From: Micromonospora parva
GTDB taxonomy: Bacteria > Actinomycetota > Actinomycetes > Mycobacteriales > Micromonosporaceae
DNA: 64,000 nucleotides
Assembly: GCF_000718515.1 (NCBI RefSeq)
Contig: NZ_JNZS01000020.1
Span: forward strand, 62,001-126,000
Direction of reading: 5' to 3'
Shown here: positions 10,668 through 18,395 of the stretch, piece by piece
Layout: every line of letters starts with the position of its first letter
How positions within the stretch are numbered: the stretch's first letter is position 1
The notes under the pieces: generated by a model
Database searches by the model: none
What the model saw: the letters and a program-made list of their open reading frames with translations, nothing else
Told to the model about the DNA's origin: nothing
Made by a program: the position numbers and the translations under genes

Positions 10668-11792
10668 TCAGAGCCAGCCGCGCCGCTTGAAGATCACATA
10701 GAGGGTGCCGCAGACCAGCAGCATCAACAGCAGCGCGAAGAGGTAACCGAAGCGCCAGTTCAGCTCCGGCATGTGGACGAAGTTCATGCCGTACACGGTG
10801 CCGATGAGCGTGGGAGCGAAGAGGATCGCCGCCCAGGAGGAAACCTTCTTCAGCTCCTCGTTCTGGCTGTAGCTGGCCGCCGTGAGACTGCGCATCTCCT
10901 CGTTCTGCTGCTGCGAGACGAGGGTCGCGTTGACGGTGAGGATGTTCTGCAACAGGTGCCGGAAACCGTCCACCCGCTCCACCACCTGGGTCAGGTGGTC
11001 GGTCACGTCGCGCAGGTAGCGGCGCAGCTCCTCGTCGGCGCTGGCGCTGCCCGCGCCGACGGCCAGCGCGTCGAGCACGCTGAGCAGGGGGCGGGCGGCC
11101 CGCTGGAACTGGATGACCTCGCGGCTGAGGCCGTAGATGCGGCGGCTGGCGTTCGGGTCGCCACCGAACACCTGGGTCTCGATCTCGTCGATGTCGTTCT
11201 CCAGCCCGGCCACCACCGGCGCGTACCCGTCGACGACCTGGTCCAGGATCGCGTACAGGACCGCCTCCGGGCCCCGGGCGAGCATCTGCGCCTCGGTCTC
11301 CATCCGCCGCCGCACCGCGGCCAGGTCCGGTGCCTCACCGTGGCGGACGGTGACCACGAAACCCGGCCCGATGAACAGGTGCAGCTCGGAGAACTCGACC
11401 TCCTCCCGCAGGTCGTCGTAGCGGGCGGCGCGCAGCACCACGAACAGGGTGTGGCCGTAGCGCTCCAGCTTGGGCCGCTGGTGGGCGTTGATCGCGTCCT
11501 CGACCGCCAGGTCGTGCAGCCGGAACTCGCGGGCCAGTGAGGTGATCTGCTCGATGTCGGGCCGGTACAACCCGATCCAGGCCATCGCGTCGTCCTGCTC
11601 CTGCAGGCAGCGGTACGTCTCGGCGAGGCCGGACGGCGAGGCGAACCGGTGCCCCCGGAGGTAGACCGCGCTGTCCACCAGGCCGTGGGAGGCTGCGGGC
11701 GACTCCGGGGGCGGCACCACGCCGACCCTCGTCTCGTACTCGTCGAGTTGACGGCCGAAGCCACCACCCGGGCGGAAACGACGGCCGACCAT
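10668..11792 (-). CDS. corA: CorA-family magnesium/cobalt transporter
   Basis: A 374-residue pentameric Mg2+ channel of the inner membrane. The long N-terminal cytoplasmic domain (about 1-310) contains the helical funnel, and the C-terminus has two transmembrane helices. The selectivity signature YGMNF lies at the end of the first helix, followed by a loop with MPEL and a C-terminal basic tail (FKRRGWL). The ATG at 11792 has a GGAGGGG ribosome-binding site; the extra 46 residues of the longer frame are antisense to the next gene's promoter. It is divergent from the APC permease across about 140 bases. Confidence 0.9.
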
Positions 11793-11931
11793 GCCCTGTC
11801 CCCTCCCCCGGTGCCGTCCGGTCCGGACCGGGAGGCTGCATCCCCGGTGCCCTGGGCCCGAAACCCGCCGGGGTGTCGGCTGGGTTCCGCGCACCGGCGG
11901 ACGGCAGCGGCCCCATGGGCGGATACTCACG

Positions 11932-13902
11932 GTGACCGTGAGCGGGATGACGGGGGACGCGCCGGTGACGTTCGACAGACGCGCCGGCCGGTTGCGGGGG
12001 TGGCTGCTCGCCGGCTCGGACCAGGCCGTGCAGCACCCGGGACCGCACGGGCGCCCGCCGGAGCACCGGCACCACCCGTGGTGGAAGGTGATGTGCCTGA
12101 CCGGTGTGGACTACTTCTCCACGCTGGGTTACCAGCCGGGCATCGCGGCGCTGGCCGCCGGGGCGCTCTCGCCGGTGGCGACGCTGGTGCTGGTGCTGGT
12201 GACGCTGCTGGGCGCGTTGCCGGTCTACCGGCGGGTGGCGGTGGAGAGCCCGCACGGTGAGGGTTCCATCGCGATGCTGGTCCGCCTGCTGAGCTACTGG
12301 CCGGGCAAGCTGCTGGTGCTGGTGCTGCTCGGTTTCGCGGCCACCGACTTCATCATCACCATCACCCTCTCGGCGGCCGACGCGACGGCGCACATCGACG
12401 AGAACCCCTTCTGGCCGAGTGCGCTCAAGGGGCACGAGGTGCTGGTCACACTGCTGCTCGTGTCGCTGCTGGGCGCGGTGTTCCTCAAGGGATTCACCGA
12501 GGCGATCGGGATCGCCGTCGTCCTGGTCGCGGTCTACCTGACGCTGAACGCGGTGGTGGTGGCCGACGCGCTGTGGCGGGTGGTGAGGCATCCGAGCGCG
12601 GTGGGCGACTGGACCACCGCGCTGACCACCGGGCACGGCGACCCGTGGTTGGTGGTCGGGCTGTCGCTGCTGGTCTTTCCGAAGCTGGCGTTGGGTCTGT
12701 CCGGCTTCGAGACCGGGGTGGCGGTGATGCCGAGCGTACGGGGTGACCCGCAGGATTCGGAGGCACGACCGCTGGGCCGGATCCGTGGCGCGCGCCGGCT
12801 GCTCACCACCGCAGCGGTGATCATGAGCGTTTTTCTGATCACCAGCAGCGTGACGACAACGGTGCTGATCCCGCCGGACGCCTTCCAGCCGGGCGGGCCG
12901 GCGAACGGGCGGGCGCTGGCCTATCTGGCACACGCTCACCTCGGCGAGGTGTTCGGCACCATCTACGACCTGTCCACCATCGGGATCCTCTGGTTCGCCG
13001 GGGCGTCGGCGATGGCTGGTCTGCTCAACCTCGTGCCGCGCTACCTGCCCCGCTACGGCATGGCGCCGACCTGGGCGCGAGCCGTCCGGCCGCTGGTGCT
13101 GGTCTTCACCTCGGTGGCGTTCCTGATCACGATCGTCTTCGAGGCCAGCGTGGACGCGCAGGGCGGCGCGTACGCCACCGGGGTGCTGGTGTTGATCACC
13201 TCGGCCGCGACGGCGGTGACGCTCGCGGCGCTGCGGCAGCGTCAGCGCGGTCGCACCATCGCGTTCGGCGTCATCGCGGTGATCTTCGTCTACACGACGC
13301 TGGCGAACGTGGTGGAACGCCCCAGTGGCGTCAAGATCGCCGCTTGTTTCATCGGCGGGATCATCCTGGTGTCGGTGTTGTCCCGGCTGATGCGGGCCTA
13401 CGAGCTGCGCGTCGATCACGTCGAACTGGATCCGGCCGCGGCCCGGATCATCGACGAACGCGCCGGCCGGCGGATCCGCCTCATCGCGCACGAACCCGAC
13501 CGGCGCGACGAGGCGGAGTACCGCGCCAAGCTCGCCCAGACCATGGCGGACAACGACTTCCCCGACGACAGCGACGTCATCTTCGTCGAGGTCGAGGTCA
13601 CCGACCCGTCCGACTTCGAGACCGAGGTGCTGGTCCGCGGCAGCGTCGTCGACGGCCGCTTCCCGGTGCTCAGCCTGGCCAGTTCGTCGGTGCCCACCGC
13701 GCTGGCCGCCCTGCTGCTGGAGATCCGCGACCGCAGCCGTCGGCGGCCCCACATCTACTTCGAGTGGTCCGAGGGCGGCCCGGTTCGCAACTTCCTGCGC
13801 TACCTGGCGTTCGGGCAGGGCGCGATCGCCTCGGTGACCCGGGAGATCCTGCGCCGCCAGGAACCCGACCCACACCGTCGACCGCACGTGCACGCCGGCT
13901 GA
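11932..13902 (+). CDS. APC-superfamily amino-acid permease-like transporter
   Basis: A protein of about 656 residues with a cytoplasmic N-terminus, 10-12 transmembrane helices (about residues 40-480) and a hydrophilic C-terminal domain of about 160 residues (from [16 protein letters not shown]). Early motifs [17 protein letters not shown] and GEGSIAML fit an APC transporter. The C-terminal soluble domain is longer than in classical amino-acid permeases and may regulate transport. The start is uncertain: in-frame GTG codons at 11932 and 11938 and ATG at 11947 are all possible; 11932 has a GGGCGGA sequence nine bases upstream. The substrate is unknown. Confidence 0.75.
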
Positions 13903-13984
13903 CCTGGGCGCGGACGGCTCGTCGCGCACGGTGAGCGTGGTCATACCGACTGGACGCGGCACCCGTTGGTGCTGCTAGCCTCGG

Positions 13985-14105
13985 CGCAGGTCATGAGCGC
14001 CAGCGCGAAGCCCCGGCTCGCTGGCCGGCAACCCTCCTCCGCGGTGGGGTGCCCCGGGTGAAGACCAGGCACCGGCACGACGTCGGTGCAAGCGTGGCCT
14101 GGCAC
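13985..14105 (+). promoter_or_regulatory. SAM-IV riboswitch
   Basis: The sequence matches the actinobacterial SAM-IV aptamer. GGTCATGAG opens the P1 stem at 13989, followed by the conserved CCCCGGCTCGCTGGCCGGC and AACCCTCC, then GCGGTGGGGTGCCCCGGGTG and the closing GACC at 14063-14066. A downstream hairpin with CACCG/CGGTG arms (about 14071-14089) fits the extra 3' stem that separates SAM-IV from SAM-I. It lies 27 bases upstream of the leader peptide and about 270 bases upstream of the ABC transporter genes. A self-complementary CCCGGG occurs in the aptamer (14053-14058) and beside the leader ribosome-binding site (14121-14126), a possible route to translational control. A weak -10-like TAGCCT lies at 13976. 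Confidence 0.85.
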
Positions 14106-14132
14106 CCAGGTCAGCACAGACCCGGGAGAACC

Positions 14133-14273
14133 ATGCGCATCCTCAGCACCACCCCACCGACTGACGTCGCGGACCTCCGCACCGGTCGACCCTCGCCCGC
14201 ACTGACCCGGCGACGGCACGTGGACACGATGCGAATGTGCAGCGCCGCCTGTCGTCGCGGCACCGCGCTCTAG
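14133..14273 (+). CDS. Cysteine-containing leader peptide
   Basis: A 46-residue small frame with its own GGGAGA ribosome-binding site, ending RRRHVDTMRMCSAACRR plus five residues. The RHVDxxR..S..C arrangement is what I know from short actinobacterial leader peptides that precede sulfur and cysteine uptake genes. The two Cys codons are at 14238-14240 and 14250-14252, near the stop. It sits between the SAM-IV riboswitch and the transporter operon, so its translation probably reports cysteine supply to the downstream genes. It is longer than typical leader peptides of this kind (about 20-30 residues). Confidence 0.7.
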   Translation: MRILSTTPPTDVADLRTGRPSPALTRRRHVDTMRMCSAACRRGTAL

Positions 14274-14296
14274 CACCACCCTCCCGAAACCCCTTT

Positions 14297-14335
14297 CCAC
14301 CGGTACGCCCATCGGGCGCGCCGTCGGTGGCGCGC
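14297..14335 (+). terminator. Possible attenuator with mutually exclusive hairpins
   Basis: Structure A pairs CCACCG (14297-14302) with CGGTGG (14325-14330), enclosing CGCCC/GGGCG (14306-14310 with 14314-14318). Structure B pairs GCGCGCC (14316-14322) with GGCGCGC (14329-14335) around a 6-base loop. A and B share bases and cannot form together. The element lies between the leader peptide stop and the first transporter gene. There is no U-tract, so termination is an inference. Confidence 0.45.
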
Positions 14336-14373
14336 ACCCACGCCCGCCGAGACACCACCCTTCGGAGACACCA

Positions 14374-15240
14374 GTGCGATTCCTTCCCGCAGTGACCCGT
14401 GCCGCCGCCCTGGGGGCGGCGACGATCCTGGCCGCCACCGCCCTCACCGCCTGCGGCGACGACAGCTCGTCCGACGCCACCACCAACCCGTACGGCCTGG
14501 CCCAGCCGGGCGTGCTGCGCGCCGGCACGCTGACCGACGCCCCGCCGAACGTGTACCTCAAGGACGGCAGGTTCACCGGCTTCGACAACGACCTGCTGAC
14601 CGCCGTGGCCGGCAAGCTCGGCCTCACTGTGGAGTTCGTCGGCACCGACTTCTCCGCGCTGCTCAGCCAGGTCAACAACCGCAAGTTCGACGTTGGCAGC
14701 TCCTCGATCACCATCACCGAGGCCCGCAAGAAGACAGTCGACTTCGGCAACGGCTACGACTTCGGCTACTTCGGCCTGGACGTCCCGGCCGGCTCGCCGA
14801 TCACCAACTTCGACCAGCTCACCGGCAAGCGGGTGGTGGTGGTGCAGGGCACGGTCCAGGACGACTACGCCACCGGCAAGCAGCTGAACCCGGTGCGGGT
14901 GCCGGACTACAACGGTGCGATCAACCAGCTCAAGGCGGGCACCGCCGACGCGTGGATCGCCCCGGCGGAGATCGGCGAGAAGTCGGCCGCCGACAGCAAC
15001 GGCAAGATCACCGTGGCGGCCAAGCAGCTCAGCCCGGCACCGACCGCGTACGCCGTGGCCAAGGGCAACGACAAGCTGCGCGAGGCGCTGAACAAGAGCC
15101 TCGACGAGGTCATCGCCGATGGCACCTGGACCCGGTTGCAGGCGCAGTACTACCCGGGCCGGCCGATCCCGGCGGACTTCAAGCCGGGCAGCGGCGCGGT
15201 CACTGTGGCGCCGTCGGCGTCCGCGTCGGCGGCGTCCTGA
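14374..15240 (+). CDS. Amino-acid ABC transporter substrate-binding lipoprotein
   Basis: A 288-residue periplasmic-binding-type lipoprotein of the polar amino-acid family (SBP_bac_3). The signal peptide ends in the lipobox LTAC with lipidated Cys27. Two-lobed fold signatures follow: FTGFDNDLLTAVAGKLGL, ITITEARKKTVDFG and VVVQGTVQDDYA. It delivers substrate to the permease and ATPase encoded next. The start codon is GTG with GGAGA upstream. Position behind a SAM-IV riboswitch and a Cys leader peptide suggests a sulfur amino acid such as cystine, but ligand residues cannot settle that. Confidence 0.85.
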   Translation: MRFLPAVTRAAALGAATILAATALTACGDDSSSDATTNPYGLAQPGVLRAGTLTDAPPNVYLKDGRFTGFDNDLLTAVAGKLGLTVEFVGTDFSALLSQVNNRKFDVGSSSITITEARKKTVDFGNGYDFGYFGLDVPAGSPITNFDQLTGKRVVVVQGTVQDDYATGKQLNPVRVPDYNGAINQLKAGTADAWIAPAEIGEKSAADSNGKITVAAKQLSPAPTAYAVAKGNDKLREALNKSLDEVIADGTWTRLQAQYYPGRPIPADFKPGSGAVTVAPSASASAAS

Positions 15241-15279
15241 ACCGGTGACGAGCGAGCGGGGCGGTAGGAGAGGCGACAC

Positions 15280-16050
15280 ATGGATCCGTTGAGCACCCTG
15301 TGGGAAACGTTCTTCGACTGGGACTCGATGCGCGAGGCGCTGCCCGAGATGCTGACCGTCGGGTTGCCCAACACGCTGATCCTGGCGGTCTCCGCCGCTC
15401 TGCTCGGCTCGGTGCTGGGCCTGCTGCTGGCCGTCGCGGGGATCTCCCGCAGCCGCTGGTTGCGATGGCCGGCGCGGGTCTACACCGACGTGTTCCGGGG
15501 GCTGCCGGCCGCCGCGACGATCCTGCTGATCGGCGTCGGGTTGGCCCCGCTGGGCATGCAGGTCTGGGGACCGGACCCCTACCCGTTGGGCATCCTGGCG
15601 CTGTCGCTCATCGCTGCCGCGTACATCGGGGAGATCTTCCGCTCGGGCATCCAGTCGGTGGAGGCCGCCCAGTTGGAGGGCGCCCGGGCGCTCGGTTTCT
15701 CCTGGGCCGACGCGATGCGGCTGGTGATCGTCCCGCAGGGCATCCGGCGGGTGCTGCCGGCCTGGGTGAACCAGCTCATCGCGCTGATCAAGGACTCCAG
15801 CCTGGTCTACTTCCTCGGTCTGGTGGCCAGCCAGCGGGAGCTGTTCCGGATCGGGCAGGACTACGCGGCCACCACCGGTAACGAGTCGGCGCTGCTGCTG
15901 GCGGGCCTGTGCTACCTGGCGTTGACCGTTCCGTTGACGCACGTCGTCAACTGGATCGACCGCCGGCTGCGCAACGGTCGGCCGGCCACCGCGCCGACAG
16001 ACGAGGACGACGACACCGCGCCGTACGCGATGGAAGGGGATCGGCGATGA
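15280..16050 (+). CDS. Amino-acid ABC transporter permease (PAAT/HisM type)
   Basis: A 256-residue inner-membrane permease with about five transmembrane segments. It has the family N-terminus (GLPNTLILAVSAALLGSVLG) and the EAA loop EAAQLEGARALGFSWADAMRLVIVPQG near residues 127-153, which docks the ATPase. A GGTAGGAGAGG ribosome-binding site precedes the ATG. The 3' end overlaps the ATPase start by four bases (ATGA). A single permease gene suggests a homodimer. Confidence 0.9.
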   Translation: MDPLSTLWETFFDWDSMREALPEMLTVGLPNTLILAVSAALLGSVLGLLLAVAGISRSRWLRWPARVYTDVFRGLPAAATILLIGVGLAPLGMQVWGPDPYPLGILALSLIAAAYIGEIFRSGIQSVEAAQLEGARALGFSWADAMRLVIVPQGIRRVLPAWVNQLIALIKDSSLVYFLGLVASQRELFRIGQDYAATTGNESALLLAGLCYLALTVPLTHVVNWIDRRLRNGRPATAPTDEDDDTAPYAMEGDRR

Positions 16051-16790
16051 CCGCCGCCAGCACGACCTCGGTCAGCCTCGACGTACGCGACGTGCACCTC
16101 GCCTTCGGACCGAACCGGGTGCTGCGTGGCGTCGACCTGTCGGTGCCGCGTGGCGCGACGGCCTGTGTCATCGGCCCGTCCGGGTCGGGCAAGTCCACAC
16201 TGCTGCGCACCATCAACCGGCTGATCGAACCGGACCGGGGCGACGTGCTGCTGGACGGGCGCAGCGTGCGGGGCGACGACCCGGACGCGCTGCGGCAGCG
16301 GGTGGGCATGGTGTTCCAGCAGTTCAACCTCTTCCCGCACATGAGCGTGCTGCGCAACGTCACGCTGGCGCTGCGCCGACTGCGCAAGCTCGGTGAGGAC
16401 GAGGCGGACGCGCTCGCCCGCGCCCAGTTGGAGCTGGTGGGGCTTGCCGGCAAGGCGAACTCCCGACCGGCGCAACTCTCCGGTGGTCAGCAGCAACGGG
16501 TAGCGATCGCCCGTGCGCTGGCGCTGCGGCCCGAGGTGATGCTCTTTGACGAGGCGACCTCGGCGCTCGACCCGGAGCTGGTCAAGGGTGTGCTCGGGGT
16601 GATGGCCGACCTGTCCGCCGCCGGAATGACCATGGTGGTGGTGACCCACGAGATGGGCTTCGCCCGGCAGGTCGCCGACACCGTCGCCTTCATGGACCGG
16701 GGTGTGGTGCTGGAGGCCGGCCCGCCCGAGGCCGTCTTCGAGCGGGCCGAACATCCGCGGCTGCGCCGGTTCCTCGACCAGGTGCTCTGA
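16047..16790 (+). CDS. Amino-acid ABC transporter ATP-binding protein
   Basis: A 247-residue nucleotide-binding subunit of the GlnQ/HisP type. It has Walker A GPSGSGKST (about residues 44-52), Q-loop FQQFNLFPHMSVLRN, the signature LSGGQQQRVAIARAL, Walker B MLFDEATSALDPE and switch His in VVTHEMGFARQVAD. Translation is coupled to the permease through an ATGA overlap. It closes the riboswitch-controlled three-gene importer operon; a short hairpin follows the stop. Confidence 0.92.
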   Translation: MTAASTTSVSLDVRDVHLAFGPNRVLRGVDLSVPRGATACVIGPSGSGKSTLLRTINRLIEPDRGDVLLDGRSVRGDDPDALRQRVGMVFQQFNLFPHMSVLRNVTLALRRLRKLGEDEADALARAQLELVGLAGKANSRPAQLSGGQQQRVAIARALALRPEVMLFDEATSALDPELVKGVLGVMADLSAAGMTMVVVTHEMGFARQVADTVAFMDRGVVLEAGPPEAVFERAEHPRLRRFLDQVL

Positions 16791-16791
16791 G

Positions 16792-16807
16792 CCGCGCGGG
16801 CGCGCGG
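16792..16807. terminator. Short GC hairpin between convergent genes
   Basis: CCGCGC (16792-16797) pairs with GCGCGG (16802-16807) around a 4-base loop, just after the ATPase stop and ten bases from the antiporter stop. Confidence 0.4.
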
Positions 16808-16817
16808 TGGCCGACGG

Positions 16818-18395
16818 TCACTCGTTGGGTTCGCGCCCCAGCAGCCGGATCTCCTCGTTGTCCAGCGCGGACTGGAGTTCCTGCAACACCAGGTCGTCGA
16901 TTTCCCGGTTGTCGCGCAGTCGGGTGACCTCCCGCCTCTTGTGCGCGAGGACGCCGAGGCGCAGTTGCCGTTCCAGCCGGCGCTCATCGGCGATGGTCCC
17001 ACCGCCCTCGTTGAGGTCCTCCAGGTGCCGCTGGTACTCGGCCTCCAGCCGACGCACCGAATCACCCTGGACACCGATCTCCGCGGCGACCTGCGGGAGG
17101 GCGGCCAGGCCCGCCTCGGCGGCCCGCCGCCGGGCGTGCCGGGCCTCGTCGACGCGTCCCGGGTCGCCGCTGAGCCCGGCCCAGCGCACCACCAGCGGCA
17201 GGGTGGTGCCCTGCAGGAGCATGATCAGCACGATCACCAGCGCGGTGACGAAGATGATCAGGTCGCGTTCGACAACCGGCCGGCCATCCACAGTCATCGT
17301 CGGGACGGCCAGGGCGGCGGCGAGCGACACCGCACCCCGGAAACCGGCCCAGCCCCCGACGGTCCCCACCCGCCAGCCGGAGGGACCTCGACCGACGTCG
17401 TCCACCATCCGGCGGCGGCGCAGTCGCGCCGACTGCGCTGTGACATAGATGAAGAGCAGCCGGGTGGCCACGACGACCACCGTGACCACCAGCGCGATCA
17501 GCAGCGCCCGCTGCGGCGACGTGCTGGTGATGCCCCGCACCGCGCGGGGAATCTGCGTGCCGAGCAGGACGAACAGGCCACCGTTGATCAGGAAGGTGGA
17601 CAGGTCCCAGAACGCGAACGCCAGCACCCGGGACCGGGCGCGGATCACCCGCGGGCCGGCGTAGGACAGCACCAGGCCGGCGACCACCACCGCCAACACA
17701 CCGCTGGCATGCACCGAGTCGGCGAGCAGGAAGGCGCCGAACGGGGTCAGCACGCTGAGCGCGCCCTCGCGCAGCGGATCGTCGAGCCGTTTGCGGACCA
17801 GCACCACGGCGGCCCCCACCAGCAGACCGGCGACCACACCGCCGACGCTGGCGCCGACGAACTCCTCGCCGACGCCGAGCACGCCCGGCTCGGCGCTCTG
17901 GCTGAGCAGACCCACTGCCACCGCGAAGACCACCAGCGCGGTGCCGTCGTTGATCAGGCTCTCCGCGTGCAGGGTGGTGAGCAGCTTGCGGGGCAACCGC
18001 TTGGCCAGACCGGTGACCGCGGCGGCGTCGGTCGGCGCGAGGACCGCGCCGAGCACCCAGGCAGCGGCGGGGTTCACCCCGAACGCCTGCGCGGCGTACG
18101 ACACGGTGACCATGGTGAGCACCACCAGCACCACGGCGAGCATCCCGATCACCGGCAGGTTGGCGCGGATCTCGCGCAGGCTGATGGTGAGGCTCTCCCG
18201 GTACAGGATCGCCGGCAGGAAGATCAGCAGGACCAGATCCGGTTCCAGGGTGACCTCGGACAGCGGCGGCGTGAACCCGAGCAGCACGCCCAACGCGATG
18301 AGCAGGACCGGCGGGGCCACCCGGTACCGACCGCCGACGGTGGTACCGACGAGCACTGTGACACCGAGCACCACGATCAGGACGAGCGCCTCCAC
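16818..18395 (-). CDS. Na+/H+ antiporter (CPA1 family)
   Basis: A 525-residue cation/proton antiporter with 12 or so transmembrane helices (about residues 1-410) and a hydrophilic, helical C-terminal tail. Family motifs include PTDAAAVTGLAKRLP, the ion-binding INDGTALVVFAVAVG and GWAGFRGAVSLAAALAVP. It exports Na+ (or K+) in exchange for protons and supports pH and salt homeostasis. The GTG start at 18395 has a GAGGGGGT ribosome-binding site; the longer frame adds an Arg-rich stretch without a site. It is convergent with the amino-acid importer. Confidence 0.88.
   Translation of the reverse strand: MEALVLIVVLGVTVLVGTTVGGRYRVAPPVLLIALGVLLGFTPPLSEVTLEPDLVLLIFLPAILYRESLTISLREIRANLPVIGMLAVVLVVLTMVTVSYAAQAFGVNPAAAWVLGAVLAPTDAAAVTGLAKRLPRKLLTTLHAESLINDGTALVVFAVAVGLLSQSAEPGVLGVGEEFVGASVGGVVAGLLVGAAVVLVRKRLDDPLREGALSVLTPFGAFLLADSVHASGVLAVVVAGLVLSYAGPRVIRARSRVLAFAFWDLSTFLINGGLFVLLGTQIPRAVRGITSTSPQRALLIALVVTVVVVATRLLFIYVTAQSARLRRRRMVDDVGRGPSGWRVGTVGGWAGFRGAVSLAAALAVPTMTVDGRPVVERDLIIFVTALVIVLIMLLQGTTLPLVVRWAGLSGDPGRVDEARHARRRAAEAGLAALPQVAAEIGVQGDSVRRLEAEYQRHLEDLNEGGGTIADERRLERQLRLGVLAHKRREVTRLRDNREIDDLVLQELQSALDNEEIRLLGREPNE

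What the first reader, a model, noticed from the sequence alone, without database searches (positions are those of the whole stretch)
13985..16790. SAM-IV riboswitch and cysteine leader peptide stacked before one amino-acid ABC importer
The aptamer core and the leader peptide with its own ribosome-binding site lie in series ahead of three overlapping or closely spaced transporter genes. SAM-IV elements are known in actinobacteria, and Cys-rich leader peptides are known before sulfur genes. The two together, before a polar-amino-acid importer, suggest dual sensing of SAM and cysteine. The importer might therefore be a cystine or sulfur amino-acid transporter.
Basis: partly seen in the sequence, partly recalled or inferred. 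Interest (0 to 1): 0.75.

Follow-up and report, generated by a model that had tools for sequence, protein, structure and literature searches.

The report
SAM riboswitch gating a cysteine-sensing leader
In soil bacteria of the genus Micromonospora, an RNA switch for the sulfur compound SAM sits directly in front of a tiny gene of a cysteine-sensing type that itself sits in front of an amino-acid importer, so two sulfur signals appear to be read in series before one transporter is made.

Summary
A complete SAM-IV aptamer lies at 13989-14100 (104.2 bits, cut-off 38). A 46-aa leader ORF follows, then a three-gene polar amino-acid ABC importer. The leader's Shine-Dalgarno (14124-14129) and ATG (14133) abut the aptamer's 3' helices; it ends in RRHVDTMRMCSAACRRGTAL. 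The order recurs at 73 of 73 importer loci whose aptamer could be located, with 15 start-to-motif lengths, all multiples of 3. In the sister genus Plantactinospora the same leader and importer follow a different SAM aptamer class, SAM-I, whose 3' end overlaps the leader's Shine-Dalgarno (5 of 5 genomes read). That two classes sit at the same place argues that SAM control of the leader is selected. My reading: SAM gates the leader; ribosome behaviour at its last Cys codon then sets the importer. Both switching steps are inferred; two folding tests of simple models were negative. Unexpected: this Cys codon is nearly always UGU (73/73 here; 30/30 before a sulfite-reductase-like gene; 117 of 123 family matches across the class), against 13-19% in genes. 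Riboswitch-gated uORFs and Cys leaders are each known; my searches found neither the combination nor the UGU bias. The substrate is unproven.

The parts
13939..13956 (+). conserved upstream block (GGTCATACCGACTGGACG in the window)
   Evidence: recurs with small variation in the 17 loci printed; role unknown
13976..13981 (+). -10-like hexamer TAGCCT
   Evidence: TANNNT begins 13 or 14 nt before the aptamer's first base in 73 of 73 loci; the sigma-70 consensus scan of 13800-16900 found no promoter
13989..14100 (+). SAM-IV riboswitch aptamer (RF00634)
   Evidence: cmscan 104.2 bits; 72 aligned loci, most core columns invariant
14096..14112 (+). candidate anti-sequestor helix GGCCTGG(14096-14102)/CCAGGTC(14106-14112), overlapping the aptamer's 3' end
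   Evidence: can pair in 72 of 73 loci (the miss, L030, was mis-anchored by the script); RNAalifold consensus helix
14109..14122 (+). candidate sequestor hairpin GGTC/GACC next to the leader SD, exclusive with the helix above
   Evidence: can pair in 72 of 73 (same miss); one locus changed on both sides (GGCC/GGCC), two with a G-U pair
14124..14129 (+). Shine-Dalgarno of the leader (GGGAGA)
   Evidence: sequence; SD-like string plus start found in 73 of 73
14133..14273 (+). leader peptide ORF, 46 aa, MRILSTTPPTDVADLRTGRPSPALTRRRHVDTMRMCSAACRRGTAL
   Evidence: start-to-motif distance divisible by 3 in 73 of 73, 15 distinct lengths
14211..14225 (+). RRHVD codons of the leader
   Evidence: R, R, H and D invariant in 73 of 73, V in 69 and I in 4, with all four CGN codons in use for both Arg
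14250..14252 (+). last Cys codon, TGT
   Evidence: TGT in 73 of 73 importer leaders
14274..14300 (+). C-rich, G-poor tract after the leader stop
   Evidence: first 27 nt after the stop: mean C 0.55, G 0.16; C more than twice G in 62 of 73
14301..14323 (+). hairpin HP1
   Evidence: at least two hairpins of 6 bp or more in 70 of 73 spacers, 21.35 on average (maximum 28) in 20 rounds of shuffling
14324..14350 (+). hairpin HP2
14364..14368 (+). Shine-Dalgarno of the importer (GGAGA)
   Evidence: sequence; GGAG invariant in the 66 sequences of alignment A2
14374..15240 (+). substrate-binding lipoprotein, family 3
   Evidence: PF00497, 108.2 bits
15280..16050 (+). ABC permease
   Evidence: PF00528, 89.5 bits; TIGR01726 above cut-off
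16047..16790 (+). ABC ATPase
   Evidence: PF00005, 127.9 bits

Best explanation
A two-input leader RNA controls a probable sulfur amino-acid importer. Shown by sequence: a SAM-IV aptamer, two mutually exclusive helices, the SD and ATG of a 46-aa leader peptide of the actinobacterial Cys-leader type, a 100-nt spacer with two conserved hairpins, then the importer; in Plantactinospora a SAM-I aptamer takes the place of SAM-IV and overlaps the leader SD. Inferred: when SAM is plentiful the bound aptamer hides the leader SD, the leader is not translated, and the importer stays off. When SAM is low the leader is translated and the ribosome tests cysteine at the UGU codon; scarce Cys-tRNA stalls it there, which raises importer expression. 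Both metabolites would have to be low for full expression. How the stall is passed on across the spacer (hairpin rearrangement, Rho, or reinitiation) is unresolved.
For: SAM-IV 104.2 bits. Aptamer core plus RRHVD leader at 73 of 73 importer loci in which the aptamer could be located: the window and 72 of the 73 fetched loci L003-L075; L062 has the leader but N in the aptamer stretch. SAM-IV in 115 of 121 genomes of the genus; the exact string of aptamer end plus platform in 58 of 63 genus members and 3 of 187 other family members. The 30 best SAM-IV loci and 30 loci, which overlap each other and L003-L075, all carry the leader. SAM-I (52.7 and 57.6 bits, cut-off 44.4) before the same leader and importer in Plantactinospora L076 and L077, its last pairs overlapping the leader SD; three further genomes of that genus have SAM-I, in-frame leader and importer. 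Leader coding: frame kept through 15 lengths, aa invariant while Arg codons vary. Helices beside the leader SD in 72 of 73. Sulfur link: in the same genome three other leaders precede a nitrite/sulfite reductase, a rhodanese and an NMT1-type binding protein. TGT bias. Precedents for both halves: riboswitch-gated uORFs in M. tuberculosis (PMC11260477, PMC12810186), Cys-rich uORFs in mycobacteria (PMC4633059 passages).
Against: The importer SD was no more accessible in folds with a ribosome at either Cys codon (mean unpaired 0.28 and 0.28, n = 67 and 71) than with none (0.31, n = 71); it rose only when the fold began about 30 nt past the stop (0.39). So simple SD release by the stall is not supported. 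Masking the aptamer's 3' strand did not change leader-SD accessibility consistently (0.358 against 0.349, or 0.341 against 0.369 with a longer fragment, n = 72), so the direction of the SAM-IV switch is not shown. Sequestor and anti-sequestor hardly vary, so covariation says little. The leader is below both NCBIfam cut-offs and was not among the two matches at E 0.001 in its own genome. The first Cys is absent in 6 of 73. The binding protein does not look cystine-specific. No expression data were available.
Confidence: 0.62

Rival explanations
1. Two independent controls: the SAM riboswitch acts on transcription or mRNA stability of the whole operon, and the Cys leader acts separately on the importer; their adjacency is only ancestry.
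For: 2 of 7 importer loci outside the group (L078, L080) have the leader with no SAM riboswitch at gathering score, and the second SAM-IV of this genome stands before an aminotransferase gene without a leader, so each works alone elsewhere. The folding test does not show SAM-IV changing leader-SD access.
Against: Aptamer 3' helices adjoin the leader SD in 72 of 73 SAM-IV loci, and in Plantactinospora the SAM-I model itself ends on the leader SD. The leader frame from that SD is kept through 15 lengths.
Confidence: 0.18
2. The leader is an arrest peptide: the nascent RRHVDxxRxxSxxC chain plus a metabolite stalls the ribosome, and the Cys codon is not a gauge of charged tRNA.
For: The peptide motif is conserved at amino-acid level with varying codons and across the class, more than codon-starvation leaders need; only one Cys is invariant in the importer leader.
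Against: An arrest peptide explains a conserved Cys but not why its codon is nearly always TGT.
Confidence: 0.2
3. Rho- or RNase-based attenuation: an untranslated leader exposes the C-rich tract and transcription ends before the importer; cysteine plays at most a minor part.
For: C-rich, G-poor tract after the stop; no intrinsic-terminator-like site in the leader (both sites found in 13800-16900 lie inside the transporter genes); a Rho-coupled riboswitch uORF is reported in M. tuberculosis (PMC12810186).
Against: The tract is only about 27 nt and is followed by stable hairpins. Leaders of this kind stand before sulfur genes without a riboswitch, which argues for a sensing role of their own.
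Confidence: 0.25
4. The short ORF is a chance open frame in GC-rich DNA.
For: GC-rich DNA has many open frames.
Against: Frame, start, motif and last codon kept in 73 of 73.
Confidence: 0.01

Closest known systems
SAM-IV riboswitch, RF00634
   Same: Complete aptamer, 104.2 bits; upstream of a probably sulfur-linked operon.
   Different: The nearest start codon belongs to a sensory-type leader ORF, not to the metabolic gene. S. lividans (PMC8079986) and C. glutamicum (PMC3890552) list SAM-IV before annotated genes (passages seen).
M. tuberculosis ppe2 B12 riboswitch and pe20 Mbox, each controlling a uORF (PMC11260477: abstract and discussion read; PMC12810186: abstract, introduction and discussion read)
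   Same: A translational riboswitch whose direct target is a small ORF ahead of the operon.
   Different: In the sections read those uORFs are not described as sensing an amino acid; here the ORF is of the Cys-leader type, so two metabolites would be read in series.
Cys leader ORFs of actinobacteria (PMC1262725 passages: cys operons of Mycobacterium and P. acnes, cbs of B. longum; PMC4633059 passages; Canestrari 2020 not held, recalled, cited in PMC13236596 and PMC9094748 passages)
   Same: Cys-containing uORF before sulfur genes, ribosome pausing proposed as the sensor.
   Different: Here one invariant Cys rather than a Cys run, an SD-led start, and a riboswitch in front.
NCBIfam NF042936 (Ms4527A Cys-rich leader) and NF042934 (putative leader peptide)
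   Same: Residues 23-41 align over nearly the whole model.
   Different: Below both curated cut-offs; N-terminal extension of 14 to 30 codons before the motif.
uORFC-8-2 motif before cysS in Rhodobacterales (PMC8632094, passages seen)
   Same: Cys-codon attenuator leader.
   Different: There UGC dominates with some UGU; here the last Cys codon is UGU.

Membership tests
SAM-IV riboswitch (RF00634) | covariance-model score above gathering score, full length | tested here: met
   104.2 against 38 bits, model 1-116
SAM-IV riboswitch (RF00634) | binds SAM | not testable with these tools
   needs in-line probing
Actinobacterial Cys-rich leader peptide (NF042936/NF042934) | NCBIfam score at or above the curated cut-off | tested here: not met
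   22.8 against 45 and 17.8 against 27 bits, though E 5e-5 and 0.0019; not filed as a formal member
Actinobacterial Cys-rich leader peptide (NF042936/NF042934) | conserved motif with terminal Cys in a short in-frame ORF | tested here: met
   73 of 73
Actinobacterial Cys-rich leader peptide (NF042936/NF042934) | stands before a gene of sulfur metabolism | tested here: inconclusive
   importer substrate unknown; three sister leaders in the genome precede a sulfite/nitrite reductase, a rhodanese and an NMT1-type protein
Actinobacterial Cys-rich leader peptide (NF042936/NF042934) | expression of the downstream gene responds to cysteine | not testable with these tools
   needs reporter assays
Riboswitch-gated uORF (ppe2/pe20 type) | aptamer-linked helices bearing on the uORF's SD | tested here: inconclusive
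   helices possible in 72 of 73 and SAM-I model overlapping the SD in Plantactinospora, but the accessibility test shows no consistent shift
Polar amino-acid ABC importer | family-3 binding protein, HEQR-type permease, ATPase | tested here: met
   PF00497, PF00528, PF00005; TIGR01726 71.1 against 42.2
Cystine-specific importer (NCBIfam equivalogs) | equivalog cut-off | tested here: not met
   80.4/312, 112.7/300 (the permease's best hit) and 253.7/406 bits

The most novel reading that the evidence does not exclude
A series logic gate in one mRNA: a SAM riboswitch, SAM-IV in one genus and SAM-I in its sister, licenses translation of a second sensor, a leader peptide whose near-invariant wobble codon UGU gauges charged Cys-tRNA. 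The UGU bias would hold for a whole actinobacterial family of cysteine leaders, so that decoding of one synonymous codon, not cysteine content, is the sensor.
Probability: 0.35. Interest if true: 0.8.

Novelty: new variant of a known kind. Interest (0 to 1): 0.68.

Why it matters
It would be a riboswitch whose direct product is another sensor, giving an mRNA that integrates SAM and cysteine before paying for an importer, with two unrelated origins of the SAM part suggested by two aptamer classes in sister genera. It makes testable predictions: loss of the leader start should uncouple both signals, and a silent UGU-to-UGC change should alter regulation. The UGU bias, if confirmed, ties cysteine sensing in many actinobacteria to decoding of one codon.

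Tried and rejected
Minimal leader starting at the internal ATG 14229: not preferred. The upstream RRHVD codons are conserved at amino-acid level and most relatives read GTCGAC there, not an SD-like string (alignment A2). The internal ATG is nevertheless invariant in the 73 loci, so a second start is not excluded.

Importer SD sequestered until a ribosome stalls at Cys: not supported by ensemble folds of 71 loci (L053 and L064 dropped because the script found no SD). RNAalifold on the spacer alignments gave weak structures because MAFFT mis-aligns the spacer; folding each sequence showed the tandem hairpins.

SAM-IV switching of the leader SD by masking the aptamer's 3' strand: no consistent effect. 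The same test inside one search gave identical values because the constraint was evidently not applied; it is void.

My first view that four outgroup loci carry the leader without a SAM riboswitch rested on a SAM-IV regex and was wrong: two of the four have SAM-I.

My first view that the last Cys codon is always TGT rested on 50 of the 123 matches. Reading the other 73 gave 67 TGT, 4 TGC and 2 matches without Cys.

UGU kept for pairing with the importer's SD region (GACA): not sufficient; GACA is there in 62 of 73 loci, UGU in 73 of 73. Third positions of neighbouring codons vary.

A MetQ-type methionine importer elsewhere in the genome: none found with PF03180 (0 of 1; 7 of 14 control genomes ring). 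This leaves the importer open for methionine too.

Literature: 10 searches gave no report, in the listings and passages seen, of a SAM riboswitch stacked on a leader peptide or of the UGU bias; the library holds only open-licence papers.
Full report
What is there. The window carries one Rfam match above gathering score: SAM-IV at 13989-14100 on the plus strand, 104.2 bits against 38, complete. Downstream, in order, are an SD (GGGAGA, 14124-14129), an ATG at 14133, an ORF of 46 codons with its stop at 14271-14273, a 100-nt spacer, and three importer genes: a family-3 binding protein (14374-15240), a permease (15280-16050) and an ATPase (16047-16790). A -10-like TAGCCT begins 13 nt before the aptamer; TANNNT begins 13 or 14 nt before it in 73 of 73 loci, so transcription probably begins close to the aptamer's first base. 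The simple sigma-70 scan found no promoter.

Is it conserved? A scan of genome contigs with the binding protein kept 80 loci. L003-L075 (73 loci) are labelled Micromonospora, two Verrucosispora, one unnamed Micromonosporaceae and one Couchioplanes. In 72 of these 73 the aptamer core was found by regex; L062 has N there but has the leader. With the window that makes 73 loci scored. All 73 have the leader in frame with an SD-led start (ATG 68, GTG 5), and the distance from start to motif, measured without assuming the frame, is a multiple of 3 in all 73, over 15 different lengths from 42 to 90 nt. In the motif R, R, H, D, an internal M and the last C are invariant, while both Arg use all four CGN codons, so the peptide is under selection. 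In a separate genus sample SAM-IV occurs in 115 of 121 genomes. The exact string of aptamer end plus platform occurs in 58 of 63 genus members and in 3 of 187 other members of the family, all three in one genus. The 30 best SAM-IV loci and 30 loci all carry the leader; they overlap each other and L003-L075 (L125, for one, lies on a contig of the same length as L040), so they add breadth rather than independent counts. Two of the three other-genus loci (L126, L127) have SAM-IV at 113.3 and 109.7 bits and the importer downstream (tblastn 91 and 88%).

A second SAM aptamer class at the same place. Checking the seven importer loci outside the group (L076-L082) with Rfam showed SAM-I (RF00162), not SAM-IV, before the leader and importer in both Plantactinospora loci: 52.7 bits (L076, 3508-3598) and 57.6 bits (L077, 3539-3631), cut-off 44.4. 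The model's last pairs end on the leader's SD (GGAGG), and the leader starts with GTG 6 or 8 nt further on, in frame with RRHVDLCRTSTMLC. A family-wide SAM-I search listed further short matches; I fetched five of them. The fifth region (L340, another genus) has no leader, and none of the 30 strongest SAM-I loci has one by regex. Of the other outgroups, L078 (Kitasatospora) and L080 (Actinoallomurus) have the leader without any SAM riboswitch at gathering score, and L079, L081 and L082 have neither by my regex and Rfam. The leader is thus the common part, and the SAM aptamer is exchangeable in class. This raised my confidence in the explanation from 0.55 to 0.62 and the interest from 0.62 to 0.68.

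What does the riboswitch control? Between SAM-IV and the leader start are two helices that exclude each other: GGCCTGG/CCAGGTC, which overlaps the aptamer's 3' end, and GGTC/GACC beside the SD. Both can form in 72 of 73 loci; the miss is a script anchoring failure in L030. One locus has both sides of GGTC/GACC changed with pairing kept, and the consensus fold shows the first helix. This is the layout of a translational expression platform acting on the leader start. The second SAM-IV of the genome precedes an aminotransferase class V gene with no leader between. A thermodynamic test did not show a consistent effect of masking the aptamer's 3' strand on SD accessibility, so that SAM turns the leader off is inferred from how SAM riboswitches behave and from the SAM-I overlap, not shown.

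What does the leader sense? Its C-terminal half resembles the NCBIfam Cys-rich leader models at E 5e-5 and 0.0019, below their cut-offs. Such leaders are common: 50 of 60 genomes of the class match NF042934 at E 0.001, 45 above its cut-off; in the window's genome two other leaders do, the window's own does not reach E 0.001. In the same genome three others precede a nitrite/sulfite reductase (L123), a rhodanese (L196) and an NMT1-type binding protein (L233). Cysteine-related uORFs are described for mycobacteria (passages of PMC1262725, PMC4633059, PMC13236596; the main paper, Canestrari 2020, is not held and is recalled).

The UGU bias. The last Cys codon of the motif is TGT in 73 of 73 importer leaders, in the further importer leaders read (L076, L077, L078, L080, L126, L127; L338, L341, L342), in 30 of 30 leaders before the sulfite-reductase-like gene (30 of the 41 genomes matched), and in 117 of the 123 matches listed by the protein-level family search across the class (30 of 30; 20 of 20; 67 of 73). 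The six others: two matches have no Cys (L288, L301), two end before the motif's last Cys (L265, L292), one lies in a Cys run (L287), and one is a plain exception with TGC (L277). Earlier Cys codons in the same 123 matches are TGC 69, TGT 10. In importer leaders the first Cys is TGC in 64 of the 67 that have it. Ordinary genes use TGT for 115 of 855 Cys codons (importer loci) and 23 of 120 (window), and 52 of 306 (class loci). The search was by protein, so it could not select the codon. Neighbouring third positions vary, and pairing with GACA near the importer SD does not explain it (62 of 73). The simplest reading is that wobble decoding of UGU by the single Cys tRNA (recalled) makes a slow, supply-sensitive codon. 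An unseen RNA-level constraint remains possible. I found no report of this.

How does the leader act on the importer? Unresolved. The spacer (55 to 147 nt, median 103) starts with a C-rich tract and holds at least two hairpins in 70 of 73 loci, against 21.35 on average in shuffles. Release of the importer SD by a stalled ribosome is not supported by ensemble folding. Rho-dependent control, as reported for the M. tuberculosis pe20 Mbox (PMC12810186), and reinitiation, as for ppe2 (PMC11260477), are open.

Substrate. The binding protein's best solved relatives are deoxyfructosyl-amino-acid binding proteins (163.5 bits); cystine equivalogs are far below cut-off, although the permease's best NCBIfam hit is the cystine one. 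No MetQ-type lipoprotein was found in this genome. A sulfur amino acid is likely from the regulation alone; cystine in particular is a guess.

Verdict. Real, conserved, and a new combination of two known devices, found with two SAM aptamer classes, and with an unexpected codon bias in the leader.

Noticed in passing
leader family across the class: L185-L307: The last Cys codon in the family match is TGT in 117 of 123, while earlier Cys codons in the same matches are TGC 69, TGT 10.
   Followed up: partly
L076 3508-3598, L077 3539-3631, L338, L341, L342: Plantactinospora puts SAM-I instead of SAM-IV before the same leader and importer; the SAM-I model ends on the leader's SD.
   Followed up: partly
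G000:C24:44742 (L123), C2:34391 (L196), C12:29126 (L233): Three further Cys-type leaders in the same genome, before a nitrite/sulfite reductase, a rhodanese and an NMT1-type binding protein.
   Followed up: partly
L002 (G000:C2:56678): Second SAM-IV of the genome, directly before an aminotransferase class V gene; its 3' side also seems to offer alternative helices near the gene's SD (read by eye).
   Followed up: partly
window 11791-13902: 703-aa ORF that looks like a multi-spanning transporter, without any Pfam or NCBIfam match at 1e-3; it ends 87 nt before the aptamer.
   Followed up: no
window 13939-13956: Block GGTCATACCGACTGGACG, recurring with small variation in the 17 loci printed; possible regulator site or -35 region.
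   Followed up: no
L026, spacer after the leader stop: A long, nearly perfect inverted repeat stands where the tandem hairpins are elsewhere, perhaps an inserted element.
   Followed up: no
G012, G025, G060, G077, G080, G100: 6 of 121 genus genomes show no SAM-IV; whether their importer keeps the leader was not checked.
   Followed up: no
S. lividans metL leader (PMC8079986 Table 4, passage seen): The leader before metNIQ is called methionine-dependent there but ends in CMCRRMCAF; it could sense cysteine as well. It matches no NCBIfam model.
   Followed up: no
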